64,000 nucleotides of DNA, from positions 5,127,501-5,191,500 of the forward strand of contig JAPYXD010000250.1 of assembly GCA_030998225.1 (NCBI GenBank), given 5' to 3'. The notes beneath the pieces were generated by a model that was not told the DNA's origin, did no database searches, and saw nothing but the letters and a program-made list of their open reading frames with translations. Source of the stretch: Diplolepis rosae. Taxonomy: Eukaryota > Arthropoda > Insecta > Hymenoptera > Diplolepididae. The first letter of the stretch is position 1. Each line of letters starts with the position of its first letter. Positions 6,786-24,394 of this stretch are shown here, piece by piece. The translations under genes were made by a program, and so were the position numbers.

Positions 6786-6935
6786 TGTCACGTCCCGCGA
6801 CGCATTAGAATGTACTATAGGCATAGGCTAGGTCTAGAGAGAAATCTGGGGAAATTACTAAAAGAGAGAGAAAACCACCTATTGAAAAGAGAGGTATAAC
6901 TACGTCACACGCAGCGGGAGACTGCGCAACGCGTG

Positions 6936-6966
6936 ACGTCACCAAAAAATATAATATAAAAAGGAC
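6936..6966 (+). promoter_or_regulatory. LTR promoter: CRE-like site plus TATA box
   Basis: TGACGTCA at 6936-6943 is a perfect CRE/ATF palindrome, 13 bp before TATAAAAAGG at 6957-6966. Transcription should start about 30 bp further on, defining the U3/R border near 6990. The same pair is at 23783-23790 and 23804-23813 in the 3' LTR. Stress- or cAMP-responsive control is an inference. Confidence 0.65.
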
Positions 6967-7518
6967 ACGCCGCCAAGGGAAAACTAGTCTTGTGAGCAAA
7001 ATTAAGTGCGGGGAATTTCTAAAATCTTAAAAGGATTCACAGCGTGAGATACGTGTTTAGTTCAGTTTTCCGAAGAAACGTGTCGTAAATTCTCTGATTG
7101 TACTTTCAATCTTTGAAAGGATCTTAGAGTCAGTGTAGAGTGAAATAACTATTCTTGTCCTCCTCACACCAGTGGGATATTTGTTTCTGTCTTCCTCACA
7201 CCAGTGGGATACCTATTGCTGTCTTCGTCGCACCAGTGGAAGAATCTTTCTCTCTCCCTCACACCTGTGAGGATCATTCATAAAAAAGGGACTATTCACA
7301 ACTCAACAAAGGTACCGAAAATTCTCTCTATTCTTTACCTATTCCCTGTGCCATTGTTTGAATCATTGTAAAATTTTAACCTTGTTTATATCAGTGTTAA
7401 TTTAAATAAATTCAATTTGTATTACTTTACTAATCATTGTGTACTTTTCATTGACTTATCCTCATCCCTAAGAGAGGATCATTCGATCCTAACTTAAAAC
7501 GAGGAATCTTCGATCAAA

Positions 7519-7524
7519 GTAAGT
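7519..7524 (+). promoter_or_regulatory. Candidate 5' splice donor in U5
   Basis: AAA|GTAAGTAT matches the donor consensus well. It lies downstream of the TATA box and upstream of the primer site. It could join a short LTR leader to the acceptors found before the downstream ORFs. Confidence 0.55.
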
Positions 7525-7561
7525 ATTTACGTACTTGTGACGTAACATACTTCCTTTTTTC

Positions 7562-7579
7562 TGGTGCATCGGCCGGGAA
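7562..7579 (+). promoter_or_regulatory. Primer binding site, tRNA-Gly
   Basis: TGGTGCATCGGCCGGGAA is complementary to the 3' 18 nt of animal tRNA-Gly(GCC) including CCA. It starts 15 nt after the 5' LTR. It primes minus-strand DNA synthesis in retroelements. Confidence 0.85.
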
Positions 7580-8429
7580 ACACAAGTCAATTGAAATTGA
7601 ACACATTGGTTCTTAATAATAAATAAATAAATAAATAAATGATTATGAAATATTATTTCAACTTTAAAACTTAAAATTTCAATAAAATAGATTTGTTAGA
7701 TCACAAAGGGATTTGACCTTGAGGCTAACCTTAATGATTTAATAATCAGATCATTTCTTTAAAATTTTATAATTTATATAAATTGTTTAAAAATAAAATA
7801 AGTTTGAAAAATCACGCAGGGATCTGACCTTGAGGCTAACCTAAGTGATTAAGTAACTTATCTTATTTAAAAAGATATTCTAATTTGTTAACCAAGTTTT
7901 GATTTAAGTTAAAACAAACATAAAAAACAGAATATTTTTATTTGCAAAAAAAAATTTTTTGTCCAAAGATTTGCACTTAAGTTAACTTTTCCAATATAAT
8001 AAAAATAATTTATGAATATTTCGAATGATCATTATTATAAACAAATTTGTTTAATTGTTATAAACAATTTATAAATAAATAAAATAAATTATTTTAATTT
8101 TACATAAAGGGCACATGCAGTTGGTAAAGAAAAATATTTTATTATTTTAAGAAATTTATTATTAAAAATTATAAATTTACAAACAATTGAGCGATTATTT
8201 ATTTAATTTGAATATTTGAAATAATTATATTTTTATATCATTATTTTATTTTCAAATGACGAAATACAAATTTCATTTCAAATTATATTGTTATTAAAAA
8301 TAAATAAACAAATTAAAAATAAATTTTACTAATCTCATTTTATAGTTTTTTTTATTGTTATAAACAAATTTAAAATAACAATAAACAATCAACGCTCAAT
8401 ACAAAATATTGTAAATTTATAATGACTCA
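7580..8429 (+). other. Untranslated leader with paired hairpin repeats
   Basis: 850 bp of AT-rich leader. An AATA microsatellite lies at 7615-7640. Two copies of a 40-nt unit (7700-7739 and 7811-7850) share TGACCTTGAGGCTAACCT, and each is bounded by complementary ends (ATCA/TGAT; AATCAC/GTGATT), so each can fold as a hairpin. Position between primer site and gag fits a packaging or dimerisation signal (inference). Confidence 0.6.
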
Positions 8430-10295
8430 ATGTCAAAACCAAATATCCCTTTAGAATCTACCCCGAAAGTCATAACACGTAGTCAAGCTAAACACGATAG
8501 TCAGCTTGCAAAAATAGTAGATTTGAATCAAAAGGGTAATTTAAAAATAAAACCAATTAGAAATAGAGAATATTCAACTGATAATAAATGCCAAAATATC
8601 CCTGATCCAATCCCTACAGAACAAGAATTAGATAACACTCTTAAGTTAGATGATTCAAGTTTAGACAAGACTCTAATTAATAATCAAAATATATCACGTG
8701 AAAATTCAGAAAAAACTAGCGGGTTTCATTCAAGTTTCTGTCCAGATTTAAGCATTGTAACAGGATCCAGTAATCAAGATCAAACTCTAACGAATGAATT
8801 ATCTTATTTTGACGAATTCAATTTGCTAAGCTCAACAGTAATAACAGTAGATAATAAAACTTTGAAAGAAAGATTGGAAACCTCATTGGCACGCGAATCT
8901 ATAATTAGTAACAACGATAGCGACGACGACAAAAGCGACACAGAAGCCATAAATCAGGATAATCCCGTAAGAGTAAATAACGAAGAGATGGCCGTGGTCA
9001 TACCCAACAGCCAGCAGGTATCCTTACGCGACGCGCTAGAGGTGGTCCCATTGTTTGACGGAAGTAACCTCCCATTGTCACATTTTATTGAGGGTTGCAT
9101 GGAGGCAAAGGCAATGCTACCGACACCTGCAGCTCAAGAAAACCTCGCAAGGCTATTAAGAGGTAAATTAACTGGAGAAGCCAGAAAATGCATTTTTGGT
9201 TCTACTTATACAACAATAGAAGAATTGATAGAAAAATTGAAAAGAGTATATGCCCCTGCGAAAAGCGTGTACCAGTTACAGGGAGAATTAGGTAATACAT
9301 TTATGTGGGAAAGAGAAAATGTACTTTCCTATGCTGCTAGGATAAAAGAAATTGCCGACAAAATCGAAGATGCTCACAGGCTCAATAATAATGGTCAGGT
9401 AGATAATAATTTTAAAGTAAACCTTGAAAAAGACGTAATTCAATGTTTTATACGCGGTTTGCGTCCTGAGTTGGAAATTCGTGTTGAAGAAAAGGATACT
9501 TTTAAAGAAGTTATTAGCGACAGTATTGATATAGAACGAAGATTAGCTGCAAATTCCGCACTACGAAGACATAAAAATATGGATTATTCAAAAAGTGACG
9601 AATCATCTAATAATAAAAATAACAAAACAACCCGATTTAACGTAGCACTTGAAAACAAAACTATTTGTTTAATTTGTAAAAAACCAGGTCACACAACTGA
9701 AAAATGTTTTCATTTAAGTAAAGCTCAAGATGCAGTTTTTAATAATAAACAAAAAAATTTTTTGTTGCGTCCTAACCAACAAGGATATAGTAATTTCAAT
9801 GGTCAAAGAAGTAATAATAATAATAATTTTGCAAGAAACAATTACAATAATTTTTCGAATAACAATTTTTTAAGAAATAAAAATCATAATTTTAATAACA
9901 ATAACAATAATAATTTGCAAAATAGAAATAATAATTATAAAAACAATAATAATAATGTTTTACAACAAAGACACAACAATAATAACAATTTTCCTAGAAA
10001 TTTTTACAATAATAACAATAATGTTAATAATAATAATAGACAATGGAATCCAGGACAGTATCAAAACTTTAACTTAGGACAGTCTCAAAATCGAAATAAA
10101 CCATATGAAAATAGATTTTTACAAAATAATAACACTCAACAAAATTCAAATTATACTGAAATAATTTGCAATTACTGTAAACAACCCGGTCATTTAGTAC
10201 GAGACTGCAAGATACGACCAAATAACCAATCACAAACAGCTAATCAGGAAAACTCCAAAGCTCTCCCCAGCACGGGTGCACTGAGGAAAGCATAA
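8430..10295 (+). CDS. gag: Gag polyprotein
   Basis: 621 codons, intact. Residues about 1-190 are a charged N-terminal region. About 200-390 is a Ty3-type capsid (begins EVVPLFDGSNLP; contains FIRGLRPELEIRV). A CCHC knuckle CLICKKPGHTTEKC lies at 413-426 and a second, CNYCKQPGHLVRDC, at 580-593. Between the knuckles lie about 130 residues dominated by asparagine, an unusual low-complexity nucleocapsid. Gag forms the particle shell and packages RNA. The pol frame is -1 relative to gag and overlaps it from about 10244. Confidence 0.93.
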   Translation: MSKPNIPLESTPKVITRSQAKHDSQLAKIVDLNQKGNLKIKPIRNREYSTDNKCQNIPDPIPTEQELDNTLKLDDSSLDKTLINNQNISRENSEKTSGFHSSFCPDLSIVTGSSNQDQTLTNELSYFDEFNLLSSTVITVDNKTLKERLETSLARESIISNNDSDDDKSDTEAINQDNPVRVNNEEMAVVIPNSQQVSLRDALEVVPLFDGSNLPLSHFIEGCMEAKAMLPTPAAQENLARLLRGKLTGEARKCIFGSTYTTIEELIEKLKRVYAPAKSVYQLQGELGNTFMWERENVLSYAARIKEIADKIEDAHRLNNNGQVDNNFKVNLEKDVIQCFIRGLRPELEIRVEEKDTFKEVISDSIDIERRLAANSALRRHKNMDYSKSDESSNNKNNKTTRFNVALENKTICLICKKPGHTTEKCFHLSKAQDAVFNNKQKNFLLRPNQQGYSNFNGQRSNNNNNFARNNYNNFSNNNFLRNKNHNFNNNNNNNLQNRNNNYKNNNNNVLQQRHNNNNNFPRNFYNNNNNVNNNNRQWNPGQYQNFNLGQSQNRNKPYENRFLQNNNTQQNSNYTEIICNYCKQPGHLVRDCKIRPNNQSQTANQENSKALPSTGALRKA

Positions 10296-11980
10296 ATCGA
10301 GAACCACTGGCATCCACTTCTAACGATCATACAACAACAACAATAAATATTTCAAAGTCCACTTCAATTCCATCAATTATAATATCAACGGAAGGTCTAA
10401 AAAATCCAACACACATGATGATTGATACTGGTGCTGCTCGAAATTTAATTAAACAAAAGGTTCTCAACCCTGAACTACCCATAAATAGCCAAAACGTATT
10501 GAAACTTACAGGAATTAATGATTTACCACTTTACACGTTAGGACAGGTAAAAATAAACATTTTTGGTTATCCAACGATATTTAACATTATTCCCAATGAA
10601 GTCCCAGTAGAAGAAGATGGAGTATTAGGATCAGAATTTTTTCAAGATAATAGTGTGAATATAAACTATACTTCAAAATGCTTAGAAATTGAGAACCACT
10701 GTTACCCTTTTAAATCTGCCAATACATTTACTATTCCAGCTCGAACAGTTACAACATTTTATGTTAATATAAAAAATACAGAAAAGAGTGAAGGGTATGT
10801 ACCTCGATTACATATCCAAGATGGCGTCTACGTAGGTGACGCAGTTGTAAAAAATCACAGAGGAAAAGCTTATTTAAAATTTGCAAACACAAATGAAATC
10901 CCAATTACATTATCCGTCCCATTAGTTAATTTAGAAGACTTTGAAGAACAAGAATGCTATAAACAAATTGAAAATTTAATTAATTTCAAACAAACAAATA
11001 ACGAAGATTTATCAAGTAAAATATTAAATAACTTTTTAAAAACTGACAATTCTCTAATTAACTCATGCAAATTTTATAATGTAACAGACGAAGACAGAGT
11101 AGAATGTATTAAAAAACTTCTTCGATTAGACCATTTAAATCAAGATGAATATGAACATGTAGAAAAATTAATTAAAAATAATGCAGACAGATTTCAAATC
11201 CCAGGAGAACCACTTGAAGCTACTAATGTATTACAACATTCAATTCCAACTGTAGATGACGCTCCAATTTTTTCAAGACAATATAGATTTCCCCCAGTTC
11301 ACAAGGAAGAAATTACAAGACAAGTCGATGAATTATTAAAAAATAAAATAATCAAGCCCTCACAATCACCATATAACACTCCAGTATGGATAGTTCCTAA
11401 AAAACCTGATTCTCAAGGAAAAACAAAATGGAGAATGGTTCTTGATTTTCGTAAATTAAATGAAAAAACAATTGGCGATTCGTATCCTTTACCTAATATA
11501 AACGATATACTTGATTCTCTAGGATCAGCAAAATATTTTTCAGTGTTTGATTTAGCTACCGGTTTTCACCATATAAAAATGGATCCAAAAGACTCGCATA
11601 AAACCGCGTTTTCTACACCTCACGGTCATTACGAATTCGATAGAATGCCTTTCGGTTTAAAAACTGCACCTGCCACATTTCAAAGATTAATGGATTTAAC
11701 ATTAACTGGATTAATAGGAACGGAACTTTTTGTATATCTCGATGACATAGTTATATATGCAAATACTCTAGAAGAGCACGAAATTAAATTTAACAATTTA
11801 GCAGAAAGACTTAGAAAAGCAAATCTTCACTTACAACCAGACAAATGCGAATTTTTACGACCTGAAGTAGGATATTTAGGTCATATAATTGATAAAAATG
11901 GAGTACGTCCAGATCCAAAGAAAGATAATAGAAAAACTTCCCAGTCCCAAAAACACAGAAAAATGTTAAACAATTTTTAG
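10244..11980 (+). CDS. pol: Pol, protease and reverse transcriptase part
   Basis: The frame is open from 10244, overlapping the gag end in -1 register, so frameshifting is the expected way in; the first Met is at 10415. The aspartic protease motif is MIDTGAARNLI at the start. The RT follows: WRMVLDFRKLN, DLATGFHHIKM, the FGLKTAPATFQRLMD block, and the catalytic YLDDIVIY (residues 441-448 counted from 10415). The frame is lost near 11925, just before the conserved FLGLAGYYRRF connection block, which resumes in another frame at 11932. The break is a small indel and would truncate the enzyme unless it is an assembly error. Confidence 0.92.
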   Translation, partial: SGKLQSSPQHGCTEESINREPLASTSNDHTTTTINISKSTSIPSIIISTEGLKNPTHMMIDTGAARNLIKQKVLNPELPINSQNVLKLTGINDLPLYTLGQVKINIFGYPTIFNIIPNEVPVEEDGVLGSEFFQDNSVNINYTSKCLEIENHCYPFKSANTFTIPARTVTTFYVNIKNTEKSEGYVPRLHIQDGVYVGDAVVKNHRGKAYLKFANTNEIPITLSVPLVNLEDFEEQECYKQIENLINFKQTNNEDLSSKILNNFLKTDNSLINSCKFYNVTDEDRVECIKKLLRLDHLNQDEYEHVEKLIKNNADRFQIPGEPLEATNVLQHSIPTVDDAPIFSRQYRFPPVHKEEITRQVDELLKNKIIKPSQSPYNTPVWIVPKKPDSQGKTKWRMVLDFRKLNEKTIGDSYPLPNINDILDSLGSAKYFSVFDLATGFHHIKMDPKDSHKTAFSTPHGHYEFDRMPFGLKTAPATFQRLMDLTLTGLIGTELFVYLDDIVIYANTLEEHEIKFNNLAERLRKANLHLQPDKCEFLRPEVGYLGHIIDKNGVRPDPKKDNRKTSQSQKHRKMLNNF

Positions 11981-12657
11981 GCTTAGCAGGATATTATAGA
12001 CGATTTATTGATGGATTTTCAAAAATTGCAAGTCCTTTAAATCAACTTCTGAAAAAAGATACACCTTTTAATTGGACAGAAAAACAACAAGCAGCTTTCG
12101 AAATTTTAAAAGCAAAATTATGTGAAGAACCACTTTTACAACGACCTGATTTTTCTCAACCTTTTATACTCACAACAGATGCCTCAGGATTTGCAATAGG
12201 AGGTATTTTATCACAAGGTAAAATAGGTAAAGATAAGCCAATAGCATATGCTTCACGTAGTCTAAGTGATACTGAGAAAAAATATGATACATATGAGAAA
12301 GAAGCTCTTGCTATAATATTTTGTGTAACTCATTTTCGTCCTTATTTGTATGGGAGAAAATTTACTTTAGTGACTGATCACAAACCTCTAGTTTGGTTTC
12401 AAAATTCTAAAGACCCTTGTTCACGAGTTTCACGTTGGAGACTGAAACTCGCAGAATATGATTTTGATGTAATTTACAAAGCAGGAAAAATGAATGTAAA
12501 TGCAGACGCTCTCTCAAGAAACCCTATTGATGATAACAAAGAGAAATCAAGATATTTACAAGTTGACGCCAATGATACTTTTATGACTTCTCAAGAAAAA
12601 ATGTTTTCCAAGAAAACTTTTACAAGAAAAAGCAAAAAAACTCTAAAAACGAGGTAA
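11932..12657 (+). CDS. pol: Pol, RT connection and RNase H part
   Basis: A continuation of pol in a different frame: VKQFLGLAGYYRRF (RT thumb/connection), then RNase H with LTTDASGFAIGG, the KKYDTYEKEALAIIF helix and FTLVTDHKPLVWF, ending with NADALSRNP. The domain removes RNA from the RNA-DNA hybrid. The frame ends at 12657, shortly after an A7 run (12634-12640) where reading must move to the next frame. That could be slippage or a homopolymer indel. Confidence 0.9.
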   Translation, partial: KNFPVPKTQKNVKQFLGLAGYYRRFIDGFSKIASPLNQLLKKDTPFNWTEKQQAAFEILKAKLCEEPLLQRPDFSQPFILTTDASGFAIGGILSQGKIGKDKPIAYASRSLSDTEKKYDTYEKEALAIIFCVTHFRPYLYGRKFTLVTDHKPLVWFQNSKDPCSRVSRWRLKLAEYDFDVIYKAGKMNVNADALSRNPIDDNKEKSRYLQVDANDTFMTSQEKMFSKKTFTRKSKKTLKTR

Positions 12658-14822
12658 GACCTTCAAAACGAAGAAACTTGAATCCAGAAATCGTACCAGG
12701 CGACGTACATAATTTTAGCGAAATTCCGGAAGCCCAAATATTAAATATTGACTCAAAAATTCCAGAATATTTTCCGGAATTCCTTAGTGAAGAATCACTC
12801 GGTGAGATTGGTAAGAATATTTTAAAATACACAAATTTATTCAAAAATATGGCTTCAAGACTTATTTTTATGACAATATTTTTACTAAGTCCAATGTTTT
12901 CCAAAAAATACGAAAATTTATCATGGAAAACTATTACTACAAGAGCTCAAAAGAGAATAGAGCAAGAAAAAGCAAAAAATTTGAATCGAAACGAAACTCA
13001 AGAAAAATTAGACGAAAATTTTTCTTCTAAACCTCTTATGAAAAAACCACGAGGTAGGCCAAGAAAAAATCTACTTACAAATTTGAAAAATATTCCCTCT
13101 CAAACAAAAAGAAAGAGAGGTAGGCCAAGAAAACAAATGTTTGAAAACGAATTACCAGAAATAAATGTGCAAAAGGGAAGCCGAACAAAAGTAGAATCAG
13201 ATTCCGACTCTGATCCTGATTATTTAGATTATTTGAAACAAACTCAAGCCAAAAATAAAAAAAAGAAGAATGCCAAGAAGCCAAAAAATATTAATGAATT
13301 TGAAAGTGAAGAAAGTGAGAATTATTTTTCAACCTCAGAAGATGAAATCAACGACATTGAAACCTCACACGAAGGAAATGATGGAGAAAATTATGAAGAA
13401 AATTGGGAAGAGAATTTTGAAGATGATCTTGAAGACGATTTTGAAAAGAATTTCGAACAGAATTTTGAAGAAAATTTTGAAGACAATCTTGAGGAAAATT
13501 TTGATGAGAAGTTTGAAGAAAACCAAGAAGAAAAATTGGAAGAAGAATTTGAAGAGCCTTATTTTGAAGAAAATTTGAGATTAAACCGAAGATCTCAAAT
13601 AAATTGTGAAAAAATCGATAAAGATCATGATAATTATAATCGTCCACCCCCAGAACCTCCTCCTATAAACTCTCAAACAGAAAAAAAAAAAAAAAAGAAA
13701 AATTTAGTTGAATGTCGCGATCAATTAACTATGCGAAAAGATAATTATGCATACTTTGTTACAACAAATGGAACTCCTCGCGACAACGGATCAAAAATTT
13801 TAGAAAAACGTGAAACTTTACCAAAATTTAAAAATTTACAAAAGGGGATAGCAAAAGAGATTAAAAAAGGAAACTACTACCACTTTGCACTTCCAATTGA
13901 AGAAGAAACTAAAGATAATTTATCTGAAACTTTAAATAATATAAAATTATCAATTCATTCATTACATGAATTATCTCAAAAATTTAAATTACGATCTATT
14001 AGTATATCAAAAACTTCCAGAATTAATCATATACCTTGGGAAGAAGTGAAATCAATTTTCGATTCAATTTTTTCAAATTCAACTACAAAAATTATAGTTT
14101 GCAATGGAATAACGCAATATCCAACAAAGGAACAACGAACTCATTTAATTGAAGAAGCTCACTCCTCAGCATTAGGAGGCCATAAAGGCGTTACAAAAAC
14201 TTATAGCCGAATTCGCCAAAAATTTTTTTGGGAAAATATGAAAGTAGACATTCAAAAATATATTCAAGGCTGTTTACAATGTCAACTGAAAAAATTAATC
14301 AGAGTCAAAACAAAAAACCCTATGGTAATCACTGACACACCCACTACTGCTTTTGAAAAAATATCAATGGACATTGTTGGTCCACTACCTGAAACAAAAT
14401 CTGGTAACTTATATATTCTAACGATACAAGATAATTTTACCAAATATTCTTTAGCAATACCTCTTCCTAATCACCAAGCTAGTACGATAGCAGATGCTTT
14501 CGTGAAAAAATTTATTTGCATATTTGGATCACCGAAAGGAGTACTTACTGACCAAGGCAGAGATTTTTTAAGTAATTTATTAAAAAGATTGGCAAAACGT
14601 TTTAGAATTAAACAATTTCGTACCACAGCATTTCACCCTCAATCAAACGGGTCATTAGAACGTTCACATCATGTTTTAGGAGAATATCTCAAACAATTTG
14701 TTGCAAAAAATTCAGAATGGGATGATTGGCTTGAACTAGCAATGTTCTCATATAATACTAGTGTACATGAAGGCACAAAATGCACACCCTATGAATTGGT
14801 TTTTGGTAAAACTAGCTCGTGA
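12636..14822 (+). CDS. pol: Pol, AT-hook/acidic linker and integrase part
   Basis: Two AT-hook motifs (KPRGRPRK near 13044-13067 and KRGRPRK near 13113-13133) lie in a basic segment, followed by a Glu/Asp/Asn/Phe-rich repeat (about 13370-13575). This roughly 400-residue linker between RNase H and integrase is not standard for Ty3 pol. The integrase follows: an HHCC zinc domain (two His near 14160-14185, CLQC near 14275-14285), then catalytic SMDIVG, LTDQGRDF and NGSLERSH with 35 residues between the second Asp and the Glu (D,D35E). The frame ends at 14822 before the C-terminal domain. Confidence 0.9.
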   Translation, partial: KNSKNEVRPSKRRNLNPEIVPGDVHNFSEIPEAQILNIDSKIPEYFPEFLSEESLGEIGKNILKYTNLFKNMASRLIFMTIFLLSPMFSKKYENLSWKTITTRAQKRIEQEKAKNLNRNETQEKLDENFSSKPLMKKPRGRPRKNLLTNLKNIPSQTKRKRGRPRKQMFENELPEINVQKGSRTKVESDSDSDPDYLDYLKQTQAKNKKKKNAKKPKNINEFESEESENYFSTSEDEINDIETSHEGNDGENYEENWEENFEDDLEDDFEKNFEQNFEENFEDNLEENFDEKFEENQEEKLEEEFEEPYFEENLRLNRRSQINCEKIDKDHDNYNRPPPEPPPINSQTEKKKKKKNLVECRDQLTMRKDNYAYFVTTNGTPRDNGSKILEKRETLPKFKNLQKGIAKEIKKGNYYHFALPIEEETKDNLSETLNNIKLSIHSLHELSQKFKLRSISISKTSRINHIPWEEVKSIFDSIFSNSTTKIIVCNGITQYPTKEQRTHLIEEAHSSALGGHKGVTKTYSRIRQKFFWENMKVDIQKYIQGCLQCQLKKLIRVKTKNPMVITDTPTTAFEKISMDIVGPLPETKSGNLYILTIQDNFTKYSLAIPLPNHQASTIADAFVKKFICIFGSPKGVLTDQGRDFLSNLLKRLAKRFRIKQFRTTAFHPQSNGSLERSHHVLGEYLKQFVAKNSEWDDWLELAMFSYNTSVHEGTKCTPYELVFGKTSS

Positions 14823-15180
14823 ACCTTCCAGTGAACCTTTATCACAACAAGAAAAATTACAAACATATGACGATTATTTAATTAATTTCGTAACACAACT
14901 ACATGAAATGCGAACACAAGCAAGAGAAAATCTTATTTCAGCAAAAGAAAAATCGAAATTATATTATGACAAAAAAATAAGTCCTTTAGAAGTAAAAATT
15001 GGAGATTACGTGTTTTTATTAAAAGGAGGAAAAATTAAAAAACTTGACAGCCATTATACAGGGCCTTATGAAATATTGGAAGTGTTAGGAAAAGGGAATG
15101 TCAAAATAAGCTATAAAGGCAAACCTACTGTTGTCCACATTAATAGACTAAAACGCTCACATGTGCAAGTACAAAAGTAA
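14761..15180 (+). CDS. pol: Pol, integrase C-terminal domain (GPY/F)
   Basis: The last part of integrase in a new frame; reading shifts around 14800-14815, near T- and A-runs. It contains KIGDYVFLL and YTGPYEILEVLGKGNVKI, the GPY/F module found at the end of Ty3/gypsy integrases, ending in VVHINRLKR. This module helps strand transfer and target choice. Confidence 0.88.
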   Translation: MYMKAQNAHPMNWFLVKLAREPSSEPLSQQEKLQTYDDYLINFVTQLHEMRTQARENLISAKEKSKLYYDKKISPLEVKIGDYVFLLKGGKIKKLDSHYTGPYEILEVLGKGNVKISYKGKPTVVHINRLKRSHVQVQK

Positions 15181-15424: not shown

Positions 15425-15431
15425 AGATATA

Positions 15432-15713
15432 ATGGAACAAATTCATCGCAAACGCATAGATGATCTCATTGAAATAGTTCCCTGTTTTATCGACATGGTA
15501 GCTCTCTGGCCATACTTAATTCAAACTGGAATTTTTAAGAAAGACGACTGCAATATCCCCACATGGAACAGAAATCTAAACAATCCAGAAATAATAAAAG
15601 ACATTTTTTCAACAATCAAAACAAGAGGACCGGACGCATACAAAAATTTAATTCTCAGTTTACGGCTATCAAATCACATTGTCATAGCCGACATGTTGGA
15701 TATAATGAACTAG
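15432..15713 (+). CDS. CARD-like accessory protein
   Basis: 93 codons starting 6 nt after a candidate acceptor AG (15425-15426). The sequence has the layout of a single death-fold CARD: an N-terminal HRKRIDDLIEIVPCF helix, then LIQTGIF, and the signature TRGPDAYKNLILSL followed by HIVIADML. This matches the RGP-AY-LI pattern of insect initiator-caspase (Dronc-type) CARDs. CARDs pair with other CARDs in apoptosome assembly, so a free CARD could act as a decoy that blocks caspase activation (inference). Its end overlaps the upstream part of the glycoprotein frame. I know of no standard retroviral gene of this type. An alternative is a chance helical protein, but several signature positions agree. 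Confidence 0.72.
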   Translation: MEQIHRKRIDDLIEIVPCFIDMVALWPYLIQTGIFKKDDCNIPTWNRNLNNPEIIKDIFSTIKTRGPDAYKNLILSLRLSNHIVIADMLDIMN

Positions 15714-15830: not shown

Positions 15831-15832
15831 AG

Positions 15833-17864: not shown

Positions 17865-17874
17865 CATCTTCAGA

Positions 17875-18612
17875 ATGTCGCATGTTCCTTTTACAACCTT
17901 ACTAAACAAAATTATTCAACAAAGAGGAGATCCACTCCTGATTTATGAGATACTCATTGAACAAACCAATAATAATGAATGTCTATTTCACGTTAATTTA
18001 CAATATAAAAATTTTATAATAATGAATAGTGGCAAAGATAAAGAAAATGTAAAGCAAAAGGTAGCACAAAATTTATATAATGCCTTAATTAATGAATCAA
18101 AGGAAACAAATCAAAACGTCCAACCAAACTCTATTAGTAAAAATTGCAAAAAATTAAACGAAATTTGCACTGAAAATAAATTTGAGTATCCAAAATATAC
18201 AGTATTACGAATAAAAACCTCATCAAAAGACTCAACATACATAGCGATTTGTTTCATTAATAACATTAAACAAATAGGAATAGCAAACTCAATAAAAACA
18301 GCTAAGGATTTTGCTGCCATAAAAGTTATTAATTCTCTTTCGCATAAAGACGAGAAATGTGAACTACGTTTGATAAACTCGCTAGAACATTTGCATGTAA
18401 CAATTCAAGAATCATCTATAAACGATCCAAAACCTTCAACGAGTAGCCAAATAACAAAACCTATTACTTCAAATAACTATCGTGATAAAAATACAAATTC
18501 ATATAAAATGAAAACAAATAATAATCATACTGCATCATCTTTCTCTACGAAAAGCTTTAAAAAATGTTTTAAATGCGGATATAGACCTCCCAACCAGTAC
18601 AATAAATTCTAA
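17875..18612 (+). CDS. Accessory protein with two dsRNA-binding domains
   Basis: 245 codons. The ATG lies 1 nt after a candidate acceptor (CTTCAG, AG 17872-17873) and 10 nt after the glycoprotein stop. Residues about 6-72 and 90-155 each show the dsRBD alpha-beta-beta-beta-alpha pattern: YPKYTVLRI strand, then a C-terminal helix with Lys and Ala positions (VKQKVAQNLYNALI; TAKDFAAIKVINSL). The end carries CFKCG, the start of a zinc knuckle that is cut by the stop. dsRBD proteins bind A-form RNA without sequence preference, and many insect viruses use them to block Dicer/Argonaute silencing. That role here is an inference. Confidence 0.72.
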   Translation: MSHVPFTTLLNKIIQQRGDPLLIYEILIEQTNNNECLFHVNLQYKNFIIMNSGKDKENVKQKVAQNLYNALINESKETNQNVQPNSISKNCKKLNEICTENKFEYPKYTVLRIKTSSKDSTYIAICFINNIKQIGIANSIKTAKDFAAIKVINSLSHKDEKCELRLINSLEHLHVTIQESSINDPKPSTSSQITKPITSNNYRDKNTNSYKMKTNNNHTASSFSTKSFKKCFKCGYRPPNQYNKF

Positions 18613-18649
18613 TATAAACATTCCATACCGATTCAGGAAATCAACTGCA

Positions 18650-18970
18650 ATGGAGCATTACTACGACGAGCATAAACACTTACCAAGTTACCCAAAAAAG
18701 AAATACAGAACAGACTCCATGGGATTTTTAAATCATGTAGAAATTTTAAGAAACTTCACGATAAAATATGGACTGCCGTTACCGCAATATACAGTCTATC
18801 CTGATCCGAATTCGAAAACAAACTCATTTTTTCTCGCACAAATTAATATAAATGAACATTTCGTTATACAAGCCGGCCCTACTAGTGAATTAGCAGAAAA
18901 TAGAGCAGCTTTAAAATTATTATTACTACTAATAAGATCATATGATCTCTGCGACGAAAAAATTTTATAA
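18650..18970 (+). CDS. Accessory protein with dsRNA-binding domain (2)
   Basis: 106 codons; a candidate acceptor GATTCAG lies about 15 nt upstream of the ATG. Residues about 24-97 form a dsRBD: GFLNHVEILRNFTIKYG helix, LPQYTVYPDP strand, then SELAENRAALKLLLLL helix. The protein ends shortly after the domain, but the next frame (18942-19235) adds a zinc knuckle. The original product was therefore probably dsRBD plus knuckle, like the gene at 22758. Confidence 0.72.
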   Translation: MEHYYDEHKHLPSYPKKKYRTDSMGFLNHVEILRNFTIKYGLPLPQYTVYPDPNSKTNSFFLAQININEHFVIQAGPTSELAENRAALKLLLLLIRSYDLCDEKIL

Positions 18971-19235
18971 TAATGATGATAAAAAAAGGCAAAAAACCAA
19001 AAATCAAAGTATTCAAACCGATCCAAGACCAAAATTAATACCTTGGGAAAATTCCTGTAGATTTTGTAACACTCAAATGCATGCTACAAAAGAGTGCCGT
19101 AGACGAAATATTTTTAAAGTAGACAAATCAACCCAATTTCCCCCTCCAGTTCCACCAAGAAACTCCTCAACATTTAGTAGACTTTTTTCCCCTTTTCTCC
19201 AAAAAACTTCTAGACCTAAATCCAACCATATGTAA
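18942..19235 (+). CDS. Zinc-knuckle continuation of dsRBD protein 2
   Basis: 97 codons overlapping the end of the preceding ORF by 29 nt. It contains a CCHC knuckle CRFCNTQMHATKEC (19056-19097; CX2CX4HX4C), flanked by basic residues and a proline-rich tail. The overlap lies in a run of A (about 18957-18963), which suits a one-base frame change rather than a separate gene. Confidence 0.6.
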   Translation: MISATKKFYNNDDKKRQKTKNQSIQTDPRPKLIPWENSCRFCNTQMHATKECRRRNIFKVDKSTQFPPPVPPRNSSTFSRLFSPFLQKTSRPKSNHM

Positions 19236-19276
19236 ACATCCTATTTTATCCAATATTAATCCTACTTTTCTTTTTC

Positions 19277-19278
19277 AG
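19277..19278 (+). promoter_or_regulatory. Candidate splice acceptor before envelope 2
   Basis: CCTACTTTTCTTTTTCAG is the best pyrimidine tract and AG in the 3' region, 16 nt before the ATG at 19295. Confidence 0.65.
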
Positions 19279-19294
19279 CCTTCCGAGAAGCCTA

Positions 19295-20035
19295 ATGAAT
19301 TTCCTTAATCAACTAGCATCCAGAGTGTATTTAATTTTAATTCCACTCCTTTTCTCCAAAGCAGAAAAATACTTCATAGACTCACAATTTTCTCATTCTT
19401 CAGGGATTTATTTTGAACCAATTTCAAAAGTTCGTCTTTTTTCTGAAAAATATCATTTTATATCTTATATCGATATCTTTCAGCCAGACGTACTTAAATA
19501 CAAAATAATAGATTTCTCACATAAATTATATGAATATTGCATACTCTCAAATATTGCCAATAATTGTAATTTATACGATCATCAGACACAACTTGATTTT
19601 ATAGAACAACGCATCAACTATTTTCTTGAAGAAATATCATTTATATCTAGACAAGCTCGTAATATCACGAATATTTCTAACACTAATGATCCATTCTTGC
19701 AACAGATACAAAAAGTACTTTTAGAATTAAGAATGAGAAATGAAACCTCCCTTTACTGGCCCAAAGAAAATTTATTTCTACTTCCTAATCCATTTTTCCA
19801 AAAAGTTACAAATCTTTCTTCAAAACTTGACAACATTATGACCTACAAAAAATGGCATAATTCTCAAAAAGATCCAAATATTCACCTATATCGAATATTA
19901 GCAGCAAATTGGCTTAAAGACCTGCATGAAATTTCTCAATCTTTTTCTTTTTACTCCTTGACCAACTTACAGAAGCTATTACTCATGCCGCAACTAATTT
20001 ATGGCACCCTATGCTACTTCCTGATACCTTCTTAG
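19295..20035 (+). CDS. Envelope 2, F-type (errantivirus/baculovirus F-like), N-terminal part
   Basis: 246 codons with an N-terminal hydrophobic signal (VYLILIPLLFSKA), then SGIYFEPISKVRLFSEKYHF and ISYIDI. This resembles the N-terminal block of insect gypsy-type envelopes and baculovirus F proteins. A conserved-looking cysteine pair (EYCILSN...CNLY) and long helices (LDFIEQRINYFLEEISF) follow. Family members are class I-like membrane fusion proteins. The frame shifts near 20020 into the next segment. Confidence 0.6.
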   Translation: MNFLNQLASRVYLILIPLLFSKAEKYFIDSQFSHSSGIYFEPISKVRLFSEKYHFISYIDIFQPDVLKYKIIDFSHKLYEYCILSNIANNCNLYDHQTQLDFIEQRINYFLEEISFISRQARNITNISNTNDPFLQQIQKVLLELRMRNETSLYWPKENLFLLPNPFFQKVTNLSSKLDNIMTYKKWHNSQKDPNIHLYRILAANWLKDLHEISQSFSFYSLTNLQKLLLMPQLIYGTLCYFLIPS

Positions 20036-20424
20036 ACTTCAAATCCAACAAAGAAGACCCACACCTTTCAACATCCCTTTTTTCTATGGTCCTTCCATTT
20101 TCTAAAATACAATACTTCTTATTCGATAAGTACTTGATTTTTATTATGACTATACCAATCCCATCTGCTGAAGAATTTCAATTATTTAAACCACATCCAA
20201 TTCCAATACATCTCGATTTTAATACTGACGTAATTTCCTCTATTTACATAAAACCTCAAAATTCTTATCTCGCTATTTCTTCAAATAACCAATCATACTT
20301 TATAACAAATGAAAATTTCCTCAATGCATGTTATCAAAAAATGGATTCCAAACATTTTGTCACCCACCAAGATCTATATCTAACATCGATAACAATCCTA
20401 TTTGTGAAACATCAATGTTTCTAA
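20011..20424 (+). CDS. Envelope 2, central part
   Basis: 137 codons overlapping both neighbours in other frames. It includes SKIQYFLFDKYLIFIMTIPI, a strand-rich ectodomain segment typical of this envelope family, and a basic/aromatic stretch with one Cys. It is not an independent gene on this reading; entry is by a frame change near 20020 and exit near 20390. Confidence 0.52.
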   Translation: MLLPDTFLDFKSNKEDPHLSTSLFSMVLPFSKIQYFLFDKYLIFIMTIPIPSAEEFQLFKPHPIPIHLDFNTDVISSIYIKPQNSYLAISSNNQSYFITNENFLNACYQKMDSKHFVTHQDLYLTSITILFVKHQCF

Positions 20425-21080
20425 ATTCAGAACCATACAAGTGTAAAATATTCATCAGTTTTAGTGAATATCCCTTTCTAACACCATTGCAATTTCATCA
20501 TGGATGGCTATACTCAACAATTTTCCCCCGACAAATTTTCTTATCATGTCGAAAAAACTCTAAGACCTTAATCACACTCCAAGGAATAGGAATTTTGCAA
20601 ACAAAATCAGGTTGCAATCTAGATTCATCAACTCCATATTACCATCTTCAAAACCATTTGAATATAATGGATAATTCAATTCCAGTCAGCAAATCAACTA
20701 CTTCCCTTGCTATAATTTCACCATTTTTATATAATATTTCCATTCAAGAGCCTCACTTACTAAAAAAGGTATTACTTCTTCTTCAGCAAAAAGAAGACAT
20801 GCCATTATCAATCTTCGAAAACCATGTCTTTATCCTTACAAAATATGCAAACATTCAAAAAATCATTCCATCAATTTTTATTTCTAGTGCACATAAATTA
20901 ACATTAGCACTAATCTTTATCACTTTACTTATGATTACAATTTTAGGATTATTACTATTGAAAATTCAAAAAATATCTAAAAAAATAAACAAAACGCCAA
21001 CACGTATAGAACTTATACAAAAAACTCCTTTAAGCTCAGTGACAAAACCTTTACTGACCGACTTAACGTTTAACTTTTGA
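20328..21080 (+). CDS. Envelope 2, C-terminal part with membrane anchor
   Basis: 250 codons. Cysteines (CETSMF, CKIF, LSCRKNSKTL, GCNLD) form a disulphide-rich ectodomain end. A membrane segment (LTLALIFITLLMITILGLLL, about 20905-20965) is followed by a short basic tail. The layout fits the C-terminal half of F-type envelopes. Confidence 0.58.
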   Translation: MLSKNGFQTFCHPPRSISNIDNNPICETSMFLNSEPYKCKIFISFSEYPFLTPLQFHHGWLYSTIFPRQIFLSCRKNSKTLITLQGIGILQTKSGCNLDSSTPYYHLQNHLNIMDNSIPVSKSTTSLAIISPFLYNISIQEPHLLKKVLLLLQQKEDMPLSIFENHVFILTKYANIQKIIPSIFISSAHKLTLALIFITLLMITILGLLLLKIQKISKKINKTPTRIELIQKTPLSSVTKPLLTDLTFNF

Positions 21081-21417: not shown

Positions 21418-21684
21418 ATGATACCAACTCCAAGTGAACCTATTGTTAACCATCTTGGACCAGTAGACGGTGTATGTCCGCAAGACTATCCGATAGCATA
21501 CGCGCACTTATTACAGAGCTATTGCTTCGAATTAGAACCTTCAACATTGTTTTTATATTATAATCACCAAACCACAAAAAGATATTGCCAATTCTGTTTC
21601 GAGAAATTAGATGAGGAAACTCAAAATAACTGTGAATTTTTACATCATGGCATTCCATTTGTAAATTGGAATGCATATATATGA
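21418..21684 (+). CDS. Small accessory protein with CX2C motif (1)
   Basis: 88 codons; ATG 3 nt after a candidate acceptor AG. It carries RYCQFCFEKLD and further Cys/His (NNCEFLHHG), suggesting a small zinc-binding fold. Its stop overlaps the next ATG as ATGA (21681-21684). No family recognised. Confidence 0.55.
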   Translation: MIPTPSEPIVNHLGPVDGVCPQDYPIAYAHLLQSYCFELEPSTLFLYYNHQTTKRYCQFCFEKLDEETQNNCEFLHHGIPFVNWNAYI

Positions 21685-21824
21685 ATTGTTACGGTTGTCA
21701 AGAACTATTAATTACTCCGCGAAAAAGAGCAGCTGATTGTAGAGAATGTATCGAACAATATTTAAATTATAAATTCGAAATTAGTCAAGGAAACGAAGTT
21801 CTAGTAGAAAATACCCCTGCATGA
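21681..21824 (+). CDS. Small CX2C-CX2C protein overlapping by ATGA (2)
   Basis: 47 codons starting at the ATGA overlap. It contains CYGCQE and CRECIEQ, a CX2C-X13-CX2C pattern consistent with a treble-clef or ribbon zinc site. The overlap suggests termination-reinitiation from the upstream ORF, or alternatively that both were one protein separated by a frame change. Function unknown. Confidence 0.5.
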   Translation: MNCYGCQELLITPRKRAADCRECIEQYLNYKFEISQGNEVLVENTPA

Positions 21825-21963
21825 TTATACGTATCTACCTTCCACGCATGTAATCACGCATGAAAAATTTTGTTAAATTTAATAAAATCCTTAATACTAA
21901 AAAATTGTAAATTTTACAAATATTTCAAATTCCTTAAATATTGTAAATTTCCCCAACAGAAAA

Positions 21964-22397
21964 ATGCTACCCCAAGAAATCGAAACAATCGAAGCAGTAG
22001 AAGTTCGAGCAAGCGAGCAGGATGTTCAGCCGTATTTTGAAAAATCAATTATGGTCAGAATACTGCTGCACAACCCTTGGTCGAGAATTTTTACATGAAT
22101 GTTCTCGAAAAAAAACTTGTTTGCGAAGATTGTTGGATGACAGAACTCAGCTTTTTCGAAACCGAAGTAACATTACCCGTCCGAATAGACCACATAGTTA
22201 CTAAAGACTTATATTGTACGTTAAAACTATCTAGCCTCGACTGCTCCATTTGCAATACACAAATTTTTTACATGCGGCAAAGAGCAGATTTATGTGTAAC
22301 TTGTGCCGAACGTGTAATTCATTTATACCAACAAGAAGCACTGTATAACGACGTCGATTCCGAAGCATCGACTATTATTTATAACAACGACGAATAA
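21964..22397 (+). CDS. Small zinc-ribbon-like accessory protein (3), one frame break
   Basis: ATG 21964 lies 4 nt after a candidate acceptor (CCCCAACAG). The first frame runs about 45 codons. Reading continues in another frame from about 22041 to 22397. The second part has CEDCW, CSICNTQIFY and CVTCAERV, i.e. paired CX2C motifs like the two ORFs just upstream. The three small ORFs may be a diverged family. Function not recognised; metal binding is an inference. Confidence 0.5.
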
Positions 22398-22745
22398 AAA
22401 TAATAAATCAAAACATATTTTTTATTATTCTTTCTTCTAAATATAAACAATATCTATTACTAACTTTTGTTAAAAAATTTTCCCTTTTAATTTTTATTCG
22501 TTGTTTAAAATCATATTTCATATACACCACTACTTCTTCCTTAACCGCTATAATGTAACGACAAACCTTAATAAATTAAAATATTCTAAAAAACGGACCA
22601 CTGTTTTCTCTGCATGAAATATCTCTTTGAGTTAGGAAACGCGGAAAGTGAATATATCAACAAACACAAAATTATTACAAAAAAACTAACTAACTTTAAA
22701 ATTTCAATAAATTCAATCATCAACTCAAACAGGTAATTCTTTTGC
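22398..22745 (+). other. Noncoding spacer before the last accessory ORF
   Basis: AT-rich, no ORF of note on the plus strand. Ends with TTCTTTTGCAG (AG 22746-22747), a good splice acceptor. Confidence 0.5.
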
Positions 22746-22757
22746 AGATCAAAAACA

Positions 22758-23207
22758 ATGGCCTTGCAGACAAGAGACCTATCGAAAGGCACTGCTGTAC
22801 AAGTTTTAAACGAGATAAGCATTGAGTATGATTTCTCCGAACCCTCATATACTGTAAAATCGCTTGGAAAACACCAAGAACTGCCACCGTTCCAAGCGAC
22901 TTGCGAAATTTTTAAAAATAAAATAACTTTTTCTTGTATTGCGGAACCAGCCCCTCAAAAAAAGTCTGCAAAGCAAAATGCAGCATCTAAACTCTTGGAA
23001 ATGCTTTCCACAAGATATGTATTTTTAGAAGAAATGAAAGAAAAAAGCTTAATCCCAGAAACGAGAATTTTCAAAATAACTGATGAAATCAGTAAAGAAA
23101 CCTTACAAAAATGGACCAACTCTTGTGAAAGGTGTTTTCAAAGAGGGCATTTAGCTCATAACTGCCGCAATCCTTTACGTAATAGAAAATATAAAAATAA
23201 TTCTTAA
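22758..23207 (+). CDS. Accessory protein: dsRNA-binding domain plus CCHC knuckle (3)
   Basis: 149 codons, intact, ATG 10 nt after a good acceptor. Residues about 10-78 are a clear dsRBD: VQVLNEISIEYDF helix, PSYTV strand, FQATCEIF, ITFSCIA, and the C-terminal helix KKSAKQNAASKLLEML with the RNA-contacting KKxAKQxAA pattern. A CCHC knuckle CERCFQRGHLAHNC lies near residues 126-139, then a basic tail. The same dsRBD-knuckle layout recurs at 17875 and 18650/18942, suggesting duplication within the element. Likely role: RNA silencing suppressor or RNA chaperone (inference). Confidence 0.83.
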   Translation: MALQTRDLSKGTAVQVLNEISIEYDFSEPSYTVKSLGKHQELPPFQATCEIFKNKITFSCIAEPAPQKKSAKQNAASKLLEMLSTRYVFLEEMKEKSLIPETRIFKITDEISKETLQKWTNSCERCFQRGHLAHNCRNPLRNRKYKNNS

Positions 23208-23621
23208 AAATCTACATTATGAAATTACGTTACAGTTTTATATATTATTATATTACATGATATTTATAATTTACGAATATGAAATAAAAATTATTGATGT
23301 ATTTAGTTATATAAGAAAAAATCATATGTAACCTTATGTTAAGTTCATACTATTTCAAAAAAAAAACTATGTAATTATTTATAACAAAAAAATTATAATA
23401 TTTAGATAATATAAATTTTTATGACATCAAAAAAAAAAAAAAAAAAATCGATATTGGAATCAAATAGTCAAATGCAAAAAATACAAATTGTAAAAGAGAC
23501 CCCGAAATGAATGTTGGTTATTACGTCAGAAATAGAAATTCAATGTATCTTCAAAAACATTAACGAATGTATTCTTCTTCCGAAGATTCGATCGCGGATG
23601 CTTCACCCCCGCGCTCGAACT
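23208..23621 (+). other. 3' untranslated region of the element
   Basis: AT-rich with A-runs (about 23428-23446). It becomes GC-richer near 23580-23620. No ORF. Confidence 0.6.
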
Positions 23622-23632
23622 AGGGGGGGAGG
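23622..23632 (+). promoter_or_regulatory. Polypurine tract
   Basis: AGGGGGGGAGG directly abuts the 3' LTR start at 23633, the expected primer position for plus-strand synthesis. Confidence 0.92.
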
Positions 23633-24394
23633 TGTCACGTCCCGCGACGCATTAGAATGTACTATAGGCATAGGCTAGGTCTAGAGAGAAATCTGGGGAA
23701 ATTACTAAAAGAGAGAGAAAACCACCTATTGAAAAGAGAGGTATAACTACGTCACACGCAGCGGGAGACTGCGCAACGCGTGACGTCACCAAAAAATATA
23801 ATATAAAAAGGACACGCCGCCAAGGGAAAACTAGTCTTGTGAGCAAAATTAAGTGCGGGAAATTTCTAAAATCTTAAAAGGATTCACAGCGTGAGATACG
23901 TGTTTAGTTCAGTTTTCCGAAGAAACGTGTCGTAAATTCTCTGATTGTACTTTCAATCTTTGAAAGGATCTTAGAGTCAGTGTAGAGTGAAATAACTATT
24001 CTTGTCCTCCTCACACCAGTGGGATATTTGTTTCTGTCTTCCTCACACCAGTGGGATACCTATTGCTGTCTTCGTCGCACCAGTGGAAGAATCTTTCTCT
24101 CTCCCTCACACCTGTGAGGATCATTCATAAAAAAGGGACTATTCACAACTCAACAAAGGTACCGAAAATTCTCTCTATTCTTTACCTATTCCCTGTGCCA
24201 TTGTTTGAATCATTGTAAAATTTTAACCTTGTTTATATCAGTGTTAATTTAAATAAATTCAATTTGTATTACTTTACTAATCATTGTGTACTTTTCATTG
24301 ACTTATCCTCATCCCTAAGAGAGGATCATTCGATCCTAACTTAAAACGAGGAATCTTCGATCAAAGTAAGTATTTACGTACTTGTGACGTAACA
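23633..24394 (+). repeat. 3' LTR of the retrovirus-like element
   Basis: 762 bp, one substitution from the 5' copy on my reading, followed by ATAT at 24395-24398. Supplies the polyadenylation signal AATAAA at 24252-24257. Confidence 0.97.

What the first reader, a model, noticed from the sequence alone, without database searches (positions are those of the whole stretch)
6786..24394. A 17.6 kb insect retrovirus-like element with a complex accessory gene set
Between integrase and the 3' LTR there are about 8 kb with at least eight ORFs beyond one envelope: a CARD-like protein, three dsRBD/zinc-knuckle proteins, a second envelope and three small Cys-paired proteins. Insect errantiviruses known to me have gag, pol and a single env. 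The content suggests a retrovirus lineage equipped against RNAi and apoptosis, comparable in complexity to vertebrate complex retroviruses but with different genes.
Basis: partly seen in the sequence, partly recalled or inferred. Interest (0 to 1): 0.96.

Follow-up and report, generated by a model that had tools for sequence, protein, structure and literature searches.

The report
Insect endogenous retrovirus with two envelopes
A young virus-like insertion in what is probably an insect chromosome carries two unrelated kinds of virus envelope gene plus extra genes that look made to handle double-stranded RNA and perhaps cell-death signals, which would make it an unusually gene-rich insect retrovirus.

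Summary
The element is real and its coordinates are exact: 17,609 bp, 762-bp LTRs identical at 761 sites, 4-bp target duplication, primer site, polypurine tract, gag, Ty3-type pol. Some 8.4 kb after integrase hold two envelope genes of unrelated families: ENV1, chuvirus-type (Monjiviricetes_fusion, E 1e-131), and ENV2, baculovirus-F/errantivirus-type. Around them lie a CARD-like ORF and three dsRBD genes, two with or followed by zinc knuckles. It is no accident of one copy: CARD has 52 and dsRBD gene 1 has 36 database relatives, and ten natural fused proteins join modules in window order (two of them weakly).

Best reading: a Ty3/Gypsy endogenous retrovirus lineage, probably hymenopteran, that holds a chuvirus-type envelope beside an F-type one and has accessory genes. 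A new variant of a known kind; the papers consulted describe single envelopes.

The parts
6786..7547 (+). 5' LTR, 762 bp, with 32-bp tandem repeats (about 3.7 copies, 7156-7274)
7562..7579 (+). primer binding site, 18 nt; complementary to the 3' end of insect tRNA-Gly(GCC) as recalled, not searched
   Evidence: tRNA identity recalled
8430..10295 (+). gag, open, 621 aa, two CX2CX4HX4C zinc knuckles (9666, 10167)
10244..11980 (+). pol piece 1: protease (by its DTGA motif only) and reverse transcriptase; the open frame overlaps the gag end by about 50 nt in the -1 frame; no XXXYYYZ slippery heptamer found there
12346..12657 (+). pol piece 2: RNase H (C-terminal part of the profile); frame-broken on both sides in this copy
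12678..14822 (+). pol piece 3: two AT-hook-like motifs (RGRPRK; Pfam AT_hook only E 0.13), acidic repeat stretch, integrase H2C2 and rve core
14761..15180 (+). pol piece 4: integrase C-terminal domain, in another frame
15432..15713 (+). CARD-like protein, 93 aa
15854..17864 (+). ENV1, chuvirus-type (Monjiviricetes) fusion glycoprotein, in three frame-broken pieces covering profile positions 6-76, 76-406 and 434-649 of 653
17875..18612 (+). dsRBD gene 1: dsRBDs at residues 6-70 and 92-155, half a zinc-knuckle motif near the end
18650..18970 (+). dsRBD gene 2 (one dsRBD, residues 33-94, 22.2 bits, just below Pfam's 23)
18942..19235 (+). ORF with one CX2CX4HX4C zinc knuckle (19056); may be the tail of dsRBD gene 2 in another frame
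19295..21080 (+). ENV2, baculovirus-F/errantivirus-type envelope, in three frame-broken pieces; TM segment near its end; no RX(K/R)R furin site
21418..21684 (+). Cys-rich ORF c1, 88 aa, coding status unproven
21636..21824 (+). Cys-rich open stretch c2, resembling c3; coding status unproven
22041..22397 (+). Cys-rich open stretch c3, 118 codons (ORF with start from 22077); DZR_2 match E 0.0023, below cut-off
22758..23207 (+). dsRBD gene 3: dsRBD with KKSAK motif plus CX2CX4HX4C zinc knuckle (23124)
23622..23632 (+). polypurine tract
23633..24394 (+). 3' LTR

Best explanation
It is a recently inserted copy of a multi-copy Ty3/Gypsy (Metaviridae) endogenous retrovirus lineage, probably of a hymenopteran host. 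Shown: LTRs, priming and polypurine sites, gag, pol, two envelope genes of unrelated families, and CARD-like, dsRBD1 and envelope modules found in window order in other copies. Inferred: the chuvirus-type ENV1 is the working entry protein, because its changes against relatives are conservative. ENV2 is an older or auxiliary F-type envelope that may have lost fusion activity, as the F homologue did in baculoviruses that acquired GP64 (recalled analogy). The paralogous dsRBD genes arose by duplication and bind the element's double-stranded RNA to shield it from Dicer-2/siRNA processing. The CARD protein acts as a CARD-only decoy in the apoptosome. Envelope and accessory proteins would be made from spliced subgenomic RNAs.
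For: Anatomy. RT closest in the PDB to Ty3 (168 bits; foamy virus RTs 80-82, other retroviral RTs 54 or less; best 60 of 205 shown). ENV1 PF24664 E 1e-131 and 1e-68; ENV2 PF12259 in three pieces. Of 208 proteins collected, all map to the element (tblastn E <= 1e-3) and 10 span modules in window order: pol-CARD (2), CARD-ENV1 (1), CARD-dsR2 (1, a 19-residue match), ENV1-dsR1 (1), dsR1-dsR2 (3, one of them reaching only the first bases of dsR2), dsR1-ENV2 (1), ENV1 to the stretch before ENV2 to ENV2 (1). CARD: 28 of 35 members match PF00619 at E<=1, the best, P0185, above cut-off (25.5 vs 23.9 bits). dsRBD gene 1 has two separate dsRBD matches (4e-11 to dsrm; 2e-7 to the dsRBD part of an RNase III model, below that full-length model's cut-off). 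dsRBDs d1C, d2 and d3 are mutually similar (0 to 1 of 1000 shuffles). ENV1 changes are far more conservative than random single-base changes; CARD likewise against P0197 (fraction 0.0004).
Against: No function was tested. Pol, ENV1 and ENV2 are broken in this copy despite near-identical LTRs. dsRBD changes look neutral in nearly all comparisons, and so do CARD changes in most. The window's CARD match is below cut-off; a profile search of the PDB found no CARD chain, its best hit being a designed helical repeat protein (E 8.7e-5). CARD and dsRBD1 relatives all come from 'ena' records without organism names, perhaps one host, so spread across species is not shown. The structure model of dsRBD1 was poor (mean pLDDT 37.5). 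The integrase core scores higher to foamy virus than to Ty3.
Confidence: 0.5

Rival explanations
1. The dsRBD/zinc-knuckle proteins serve the element's own RNA: packaging, annealing or splicing control, working as extra nucleocapsid-like chaperones rather than as suppressors of host RNAi.
For: dsRBD gene 3 and the region after dsRBD gene 2 carry the same CX2CX4HX4C knuckle as gag; the + strand holds four, the reverse strand and 100 simulations none.
Against: dsRBDs are not a usual part of retroviral nucleocapsids (recalled); the dsRNA-binding protein 340R of an insect iridovirus is a shown RNAi suppressor (abstract of PMC4231766).
Confidence: 0.3
2. Both envelopes are functional and serve different steps or cell types, for example ENV2 for soma-to-germline transfer inside a host and ENV1 for another cell type or host-to-host spread.
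For: Both envelope domains persist in another copy, P0063, a protein that holds ENV1 and ENV2 pieces; ENV2 keeps a strong TM segment.
Against: ENV2 matches only profile positions 17-120, 296-365 and 368-588 of 609, has no RX(K/R)R site (a minimal RQAR is visible in the ORF), and I see no glycine-rich fusion peptide after it; constraint on ENV2 could be tested on 9 changes only (fraction 0.055).
Confidence: 0.2
3. The lineage is already defective: it spreads in trans and the accessory genes are decaying passengers captured once.
For: Frame breaks in pol, ENV1 and ENV2 in a copy with 761 of 762 identical LTR sites; singleton changes in CARD and dsRBD1 copies look neutral; no constraint signal in most dsRBD comparisons.
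Against: Gag, CARD, dsRBD gene 1 and dsRBD gene 3 frames are open in this copy; 32 of 52 CARD relatives cover the whole query (the database holds predicted proteins, so this is biased to open frames); ENV1 constraint; relatives P0095 and P0098 read through one ENV1 stretch that is broken here, so less damaged copies exist. Assembly indels could also explain the breaks.
Confidence: 0.2
4. The cargo is accidental: a nested insertion or host sequence picked up by this single copy.
For: Accessory relatives were found only in 'ena' records without organism names.
Against: 88 database proteins related to CARD or dsRBD1 (52 and 36), including diverged ones (P0197, 58%), and ten cross-module proteins in window order.
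Confidence: 0.03

Closest known systems
Errantivirus / insect endogenous retroviruses (gypsy, ZAM; Metaviridae)
   Same: LTR element with gag, Ty3-type pol and a baculovirus-F-type envelope downstream of integrase.
   Different: Described with one F-type envelope as a third ORF (PMC12992720 passages) and as having at most gag, pol, env (PMC7879559 whole text). Here a second, unrelated chuvirus-type envelope plus CARD-like and dsRBD genes.
Anakin (BEL-Pao element with chuvirus glycoprotein, mosquitoes)
   Same: A chuvirus-type glycoprotein held inside the LTRs of a retroelement (PMC7642597 passages).
   Different: Anakin is BEL-Pao; the passages seen mention no F-type envelope or accessory genes. 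Here pol is Ty3-type.
Jingchuvirales glycoprotein EVEs of ants and other Hymenoptera
   Same: ENV1's named relatives: 23 ants, 3 other Hymenoptera and 1 beetle among the 27 of 120 listed hits that bear an organism name. Gypsy fragments beside such glycoproteins in Hymenoptera were reported (PMC10084718 passages); ant genomes are rich in them (PMC6540820 passages).
   Different: The 2023 study reports no clear evidence of capture by Gypsy elements; here the glycoprotein sits inside the LTRs of a Gypsy-type element.
Complex vertebrate retroviruses (Retroviridae)
   Same: Several genes downstream of pol around env; spliced expression (inferred).
   Different: RT is Ty3-type; no vertebrate retroviral accessory family among the Pfam matches.
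Group I nucleopolyhedroviruses carrying GP64 plus an F homologue (recalled)
   Same: Two unrelated fusion-protein families in one genome, the F-type one possibly demoted.
   Different: DNA virus; the comparison is an analogy from memory, not tested.

Membership tests
Metaviridae (Ty3/Gypsy) | two LTRs flanking an internal region of 3 to >15 kb | tested here: met
   762-bp LTRs, internal 16,085 bp (definition PMC7879559)
[quoted passage not shown]
   PBS starts 15 nt past the LTR; tRNA identity recalled
Metaviridae (Ty3/Gypsy) | pol order protease-RT-RNase H-integrase, RT of Ty3 type | tested here: met
   protease only by its DTGA motif; integrase core scores higher to foamy virus (104 bits) than to Ty3 (79 bits)
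Metaviridae (Ty3/Gypsy) | one, two or three genes (gag, pol, env) | tested here: not met
   CARD-like, second envelope and three dsRBD modules beyond these; the text describes canonical members, so I do not take it as a bar to the family
Errantivirus | F-type envelope downstream of integrase | tested here: met
   PF12259 in three pieces, two above and one below the cut-off
Errantivirus | pol falls inside the monophyletic errantivirus clade | not tested
   no reference set of errantivirus pol sequences was at hand
Errantivirus | a single envelope gene | tested here: not met
   ENV1 and ENV2 belong to different Pfam families; so it is not filed as an errantivirus
Anakin / BEL-Pao with chuvirus glycoprotein | chuvirus-type glycoprotein inside the LTRs | tested here: met
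Anakin / BEL-Pao with chuvirus glycoprotein | BEL-Pao type pol | tested here: not met
   RT best to Ty3; no BEL-Pao-type Pfam family (that Pfam has such families is recalled)
CARD superfamily | sequence match to the CARD profile above its cut-off | tested here: inconclusive
   window copy 15.5 bits, below 23.9; 28 of 35 members at E<=1, best member 25.5 bits; PDB profile search found no CARD chain
CARD superfamily | six-helix death fold | not testable with these tools
viral RNAi suppressors with dsRBD | dsRBD fold profile | tested here: met
   genes 1 and 3 above cut-off, gene 2 just below; 25 of 31 gene 1 members at E<=0.1
viral RNAi suppressors with dsRBD | binds dsRNA and inhibits siRNA production or loading | not testable with these tools
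   needs a bench assay

The most novel reading that the evidence does not exclude
Insects of one order host a lineage of complex retroviruses that arose independently of vertebrate ones: a Ty3/Gypsy virus with two unrelated fusion glycoproteins and a dedicated set of RNAi- and apoptosis-counteracting genes, the dsRBD genes having expanded by duplication in an arms race with the host's small-RNA defence.
Probability: 0.35. Interest if true: 0.92.

Novelty: new variant of a known kind. Interest (0 to 1): 0.8.

Why it matters
If the accessory genes are functional, retroviral complexity evolved more than once, with genes suited to an insect defence (siRNA) rather than to mammalian restriction factors. 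It also shows something a 2023 survey looked for and did not find (PMC10084718 passages): a chuvirus-type glycoprotein held inside the LTRs of a Gypsy-type element, here beside the F-type envelope rather than instead of it. That makes envelope switching in insect retroviruses open to study in extant copies.

Tried and rejected
Accidental cargo was rejected. A gag-pol slippery site of the XXXYYYZ type was looked for and not found. Eight junctions inside fused relatives were looked at in the window DNA; none shows GT...AG at the alignment edges, which are imprecise, so deletion or recombination looks likelier than spliced retrocopies. IMG/VR scans with ENV1, its alignment, dsRBD1, RT, the CARD alignment, dsRBD3 and ENV2 and GTDB scans with the ENV1 alignment and RT gave no relatives; these collections hold mostly other organisms. 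The PDB gave no match to the ENV1 profile. The AlphaFold model of dsRBD1 was too poor to search with; only its helix-strand order fits two dsRBDs. Rfam gave nothing at gathering scores. NCBIfam gave no match above a cut-off. The host could not be named.

Searches in print: (10 of 10). No title or abstract start among the papers they listed (1 to 15 a call; the lists are capped, for example 10 of 3,868) describes a Gypsy element with two envelope types, or with CARD or dsRBD genes. Papers: PMC7879559 whole text; PMC12440569 outline and part 1 of 5; passages only of PMC10084718, PMC7642597, PMC6540820, PMC13172572, PMC12992720; outline and abstract of PMC4231766. Subscription papers and the errantivirus survey by Chary and Hayashi, cited inside PMC13172572, were not seen.
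Full report
1. The observation. The element spans 6786-24394 exactly. The two LTRs are 762 bp and differ at one site; they begin TG, end CA, and are flanked by ATAT. An 18-nt primer site starts 15 nt past the 5' LTR and a G-rich polypurine tract abuts the 3' LTR. I recognise the primer site as complementary to insect tRNA-Gly(GCC) from memory. The LTR carries 32-bp tandem repeats and the leader a 111-bp repeat. By LTR identity the insertion is recent.

2. Gag and pol. Gag is open, with two exact CX2CX4HX4C knuckles. The pol frame overlaps gag by about 50 nt in the -1 frame, with no standard slippery heptamer. The RT is closest in the PDB to Ty3 (168 bits), then to an 'Enzymatic polyprotein' that I take to be caulimoviral (145), foamy virus RTs (80-82; the foamy label is partly recalled) and other retroviruses (54 or less); the best 60 of 205 matches were shown. 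The integrase core scores higher to foamy virus (104 bits) than to Ty3 (79). Between RNase H and integrase lies an unusual insert: two RGRPRK motifs, AT-hook-like though Pfam's AT_hook scores only E 0.13, and a stretch up to half acidic residues built on a 12-bp repeat. An in-built chromatin tether is conceivable; that is speculation. Pol lies in four pieces here.

3. The downstream region. In 15181-23632 there are 12 + strand stop-free stretches of 90 or more codons, pieces of broken genes counted singly, against a mean of 0.86 in simulations and 3 on the other strand. From 5' to 3': a 93-aa CARD-like ORF; ENV1; dsRBD gene 1; dsRBD gene 2; a zinc-knuckle ORF; ENV2; three Cys-rich stretches; dsRBD gene 3.

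4. The envelopes. ENV1 matches Pfam Monjiviricetes_fusion over nearly the whole 653-position profile in three pieces (E 9.8e-18, 1.2e-131, 1.3e-68). ENV2 matches Baculo_F in three pieces (E 1.2e-4, below the cut-off; 1.5e-6; 4.7e-9). These are different Pfam families. ENV1 has 128 database relatives; 120 were listed, 27 with an organism name: 23 ants, 3 other Hymenoptera, 1 beetle. In a tree of 52 rows (the window and 51 of the 120, picked by me for length and name) the window sits with five unnamed sequences in a supported group (100/99), two of them under half filled, on a branch of length zero; how that group joins the ant, bee, wasp and sawfly sequences is not resolved. ENV2 has no match at profile positions 121-295, lacks an RX(K/R)R site in its ORFs, and has a TM segment in its last piece, as ENV1 has in its own.

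5. The accessory genes. The 93-aa ORF is below the Pfam CARD cut-off alone (15.5 vs 23.9 bits). Of 35 aligned family members (of 53, counting the window) 28 match CARD at E<=1, and the best, P0185, exceeds the cut-off; of ten looked at singly six matched CARD, three nothing and one another family weakly. A profile search of the PDB found no CARD chain; its two hits are designed helical repeat proteins (best E 8.7e-5). CARD is therefore likely, not proven. dsRBD gene 1 has two dsRBDs: residues 6-70 (E 2e-7 to the dsRBD end of an RNase III model, below that model's cut-off) and 92-155 (E 4.3e-11). dsRBD gene 2 scores 22.2 bits against a cut-off of 23, gene 3 29 bits. The C-terminal dsRBD of gene 1 and the dsRBDs of genes 2 and 3 are mutually similar (1, 0 and 0 of 1000 shuffles reach the scores); the N-terminal dsRBD of gene 1 resembles gene 2 (6 of 1000) but not gene 3 (167) or its own C-terminal one (871). 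Gene 3 has the charged KKSAK helix motif of RNA-binding dsRBDs; gene 2 lacks it (read; motif recalled). Two zinc knuckles of the gag type lie in this region, at 19056 and 23124; none occur on the reverse strand or in 100 simulations. The Cys-rich stretches are unproven (118 codons in 1.3%, 89 codons in 14.8% of simulations).

6. Is it one copy's accident? No. dsRBD1 has 36 relatives and CARD 52, all from 'ena' records without organism names, at 58-98% identity; 32 of the 52 cover the whole CARD query. All 208 collected proteins map to the element; 10 span more than one module, always in window order: P0201 and P0204 pol-CARD, P0205 CARD-ENV1, P0193 CARD-dsRBD2 (a 19-residue match), P0155 ENV1-dsRBD1, P0152, P0153 and P0156 dsRBD1-dsRBD2 (P0153 reaching only the first bases of the dsRBD2 ORF), P0132 dsRBD1-ENV2, P0063 ENV1 to the stretch before ENV2 to ENV2 (module borders are mine). 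These are deleted or frame-shifted copies, but they show the same genes in the same order elsewhere. The Cys-rich ORFs and dsRBD gene 3 were not protein-search queries, so nothing is known of their spread.

7. Selection. Without a second DNA copy I compared amino-acid changes reachable by one base with random single-base changes, by mean BLOSUM62; given is the fraction of simulations at least as conservative. All changes: CARD 0.135, dsRBD1 0.905, its domain 88-160 0.754, its tail 0.931. CARD: singletons 0.595, in two copies 0.097, in three or more 0.400, in six or more 0.032; against P0197 0.0004, P0194 0.577, P0189 0.138. dsRBD1: singletons 0.839, in two 0.762, in three or more 0.803, in six or more 0.340; inside the domain 0.038 for changes in three or more and 0.952 for singletons. 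ENV1 against the aligned relatives 0.0000. Against single relatives: dsRBD1 (five) 0.13-0.88, its N part 0.92, dsRBD2 0.84 and 0.71; ENV2 0.055 on 9 changes; ENV1 0.015 against P0098 (76% identical) and 0.0008 or below against eight more diverged ones. Many tests were made, so values of 0.03-0.05 carry little weight. The reading: most database copies look dead and drifting; ENV1 is constrained; CARD is constrained between the window and its most distant relative; for the dsRBD genes the question is open.

8. How it would work. Shown: anatomy, family, gene order. Inferred: full-length RNA starts in the LTR, is primed by tRNA-Gly, and gag-pol is made by frame change; Env and accessory proteins come from spliced RNAs, as Env typically does in insect endogenous retroviruses (PMC12992720 passages). 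ENV1 is the likelier fusogen. dsRBD proteins would coat dsRNA, as iridovirus 340R does when it blocks Dicer-2 processing and siRNA loading (PMC4231766 abstract). The CARD protein would cap the apoptosome. The last two steps are untested.

9. Against the known. Metaviridae are described with one to three genes (PMC7879559, whole text) and insect endogenous retroviruses with one F-type Env as a third ORF (PMC12992720 passages). Mosquito Anakin is a BEL-Pao element with a chuvirus glycoprotein (PMC7642597 passages). A 2023 survey saw Gypsy fragments beside such glycoproteins in Hymenoptera but found no clear capture by Gypsy (PMC10084718 passages). Ant genomes are rich in these glycoproteins (PMC6540820 passages). 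The element works like an errantivirus and shares its type of pol order and F-type envelope; it fails the single-envelope feature, and its place in a pol tree was not tested.

10. Limits. Pol, ENV1 and ENV2 are frame-broken here though the LTRs are nearly identical: either the copy was inserted defective, or the assembly has indels. Relatives P0095 and P0098 read through one ENV1 stretch broken here, so less damaged copies exist. The window's own genome could not be reached in ten tries.

Noticed in passing
12678-14822: Two AT-hook-like motifs and a long acidic repeat between RNase H and integrase in pol; possibly a chromatin tether.
   Followed up: partly
7156-7274 and 24003-24121: 32-bp tandem repeats inside both LTRs, enhancer-like in arrangement.
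   Followed up: no
33678-33776, minus strand: Fragment 77% identical over 102 positions to the last 100 bp of the LTR: an older relative's LTR end.
   Followed up: no
35862-37199, minus strand: 445-aa ORF with a reverse transcriptase match (RVT_1 E 5.7e-11); looks Penelope-like to me from memory.
   Followed up: partly
42369-42794 and 58630-59295: Mos1-type (HTH_48 E 3.7e-10) and Tc3-type (E 8.1e-6, below cut-off) transposase fragments.
   Followed up: partly
28794-29528 and 3484-4833 minus strand; 50258-50932 plus strand: Long ORFs with no Pfam match at 0.01.
   Followed up: partly
62118-62673: Two long ORFs overlapping on opposite strands; the plus one has a sub-cut-off Imm3 match.
   Followed up: partly
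7548-23632: Sense strand of the internal region is A-rich (40% A, 13% G), as in some retroviruses.
   Followed up: no
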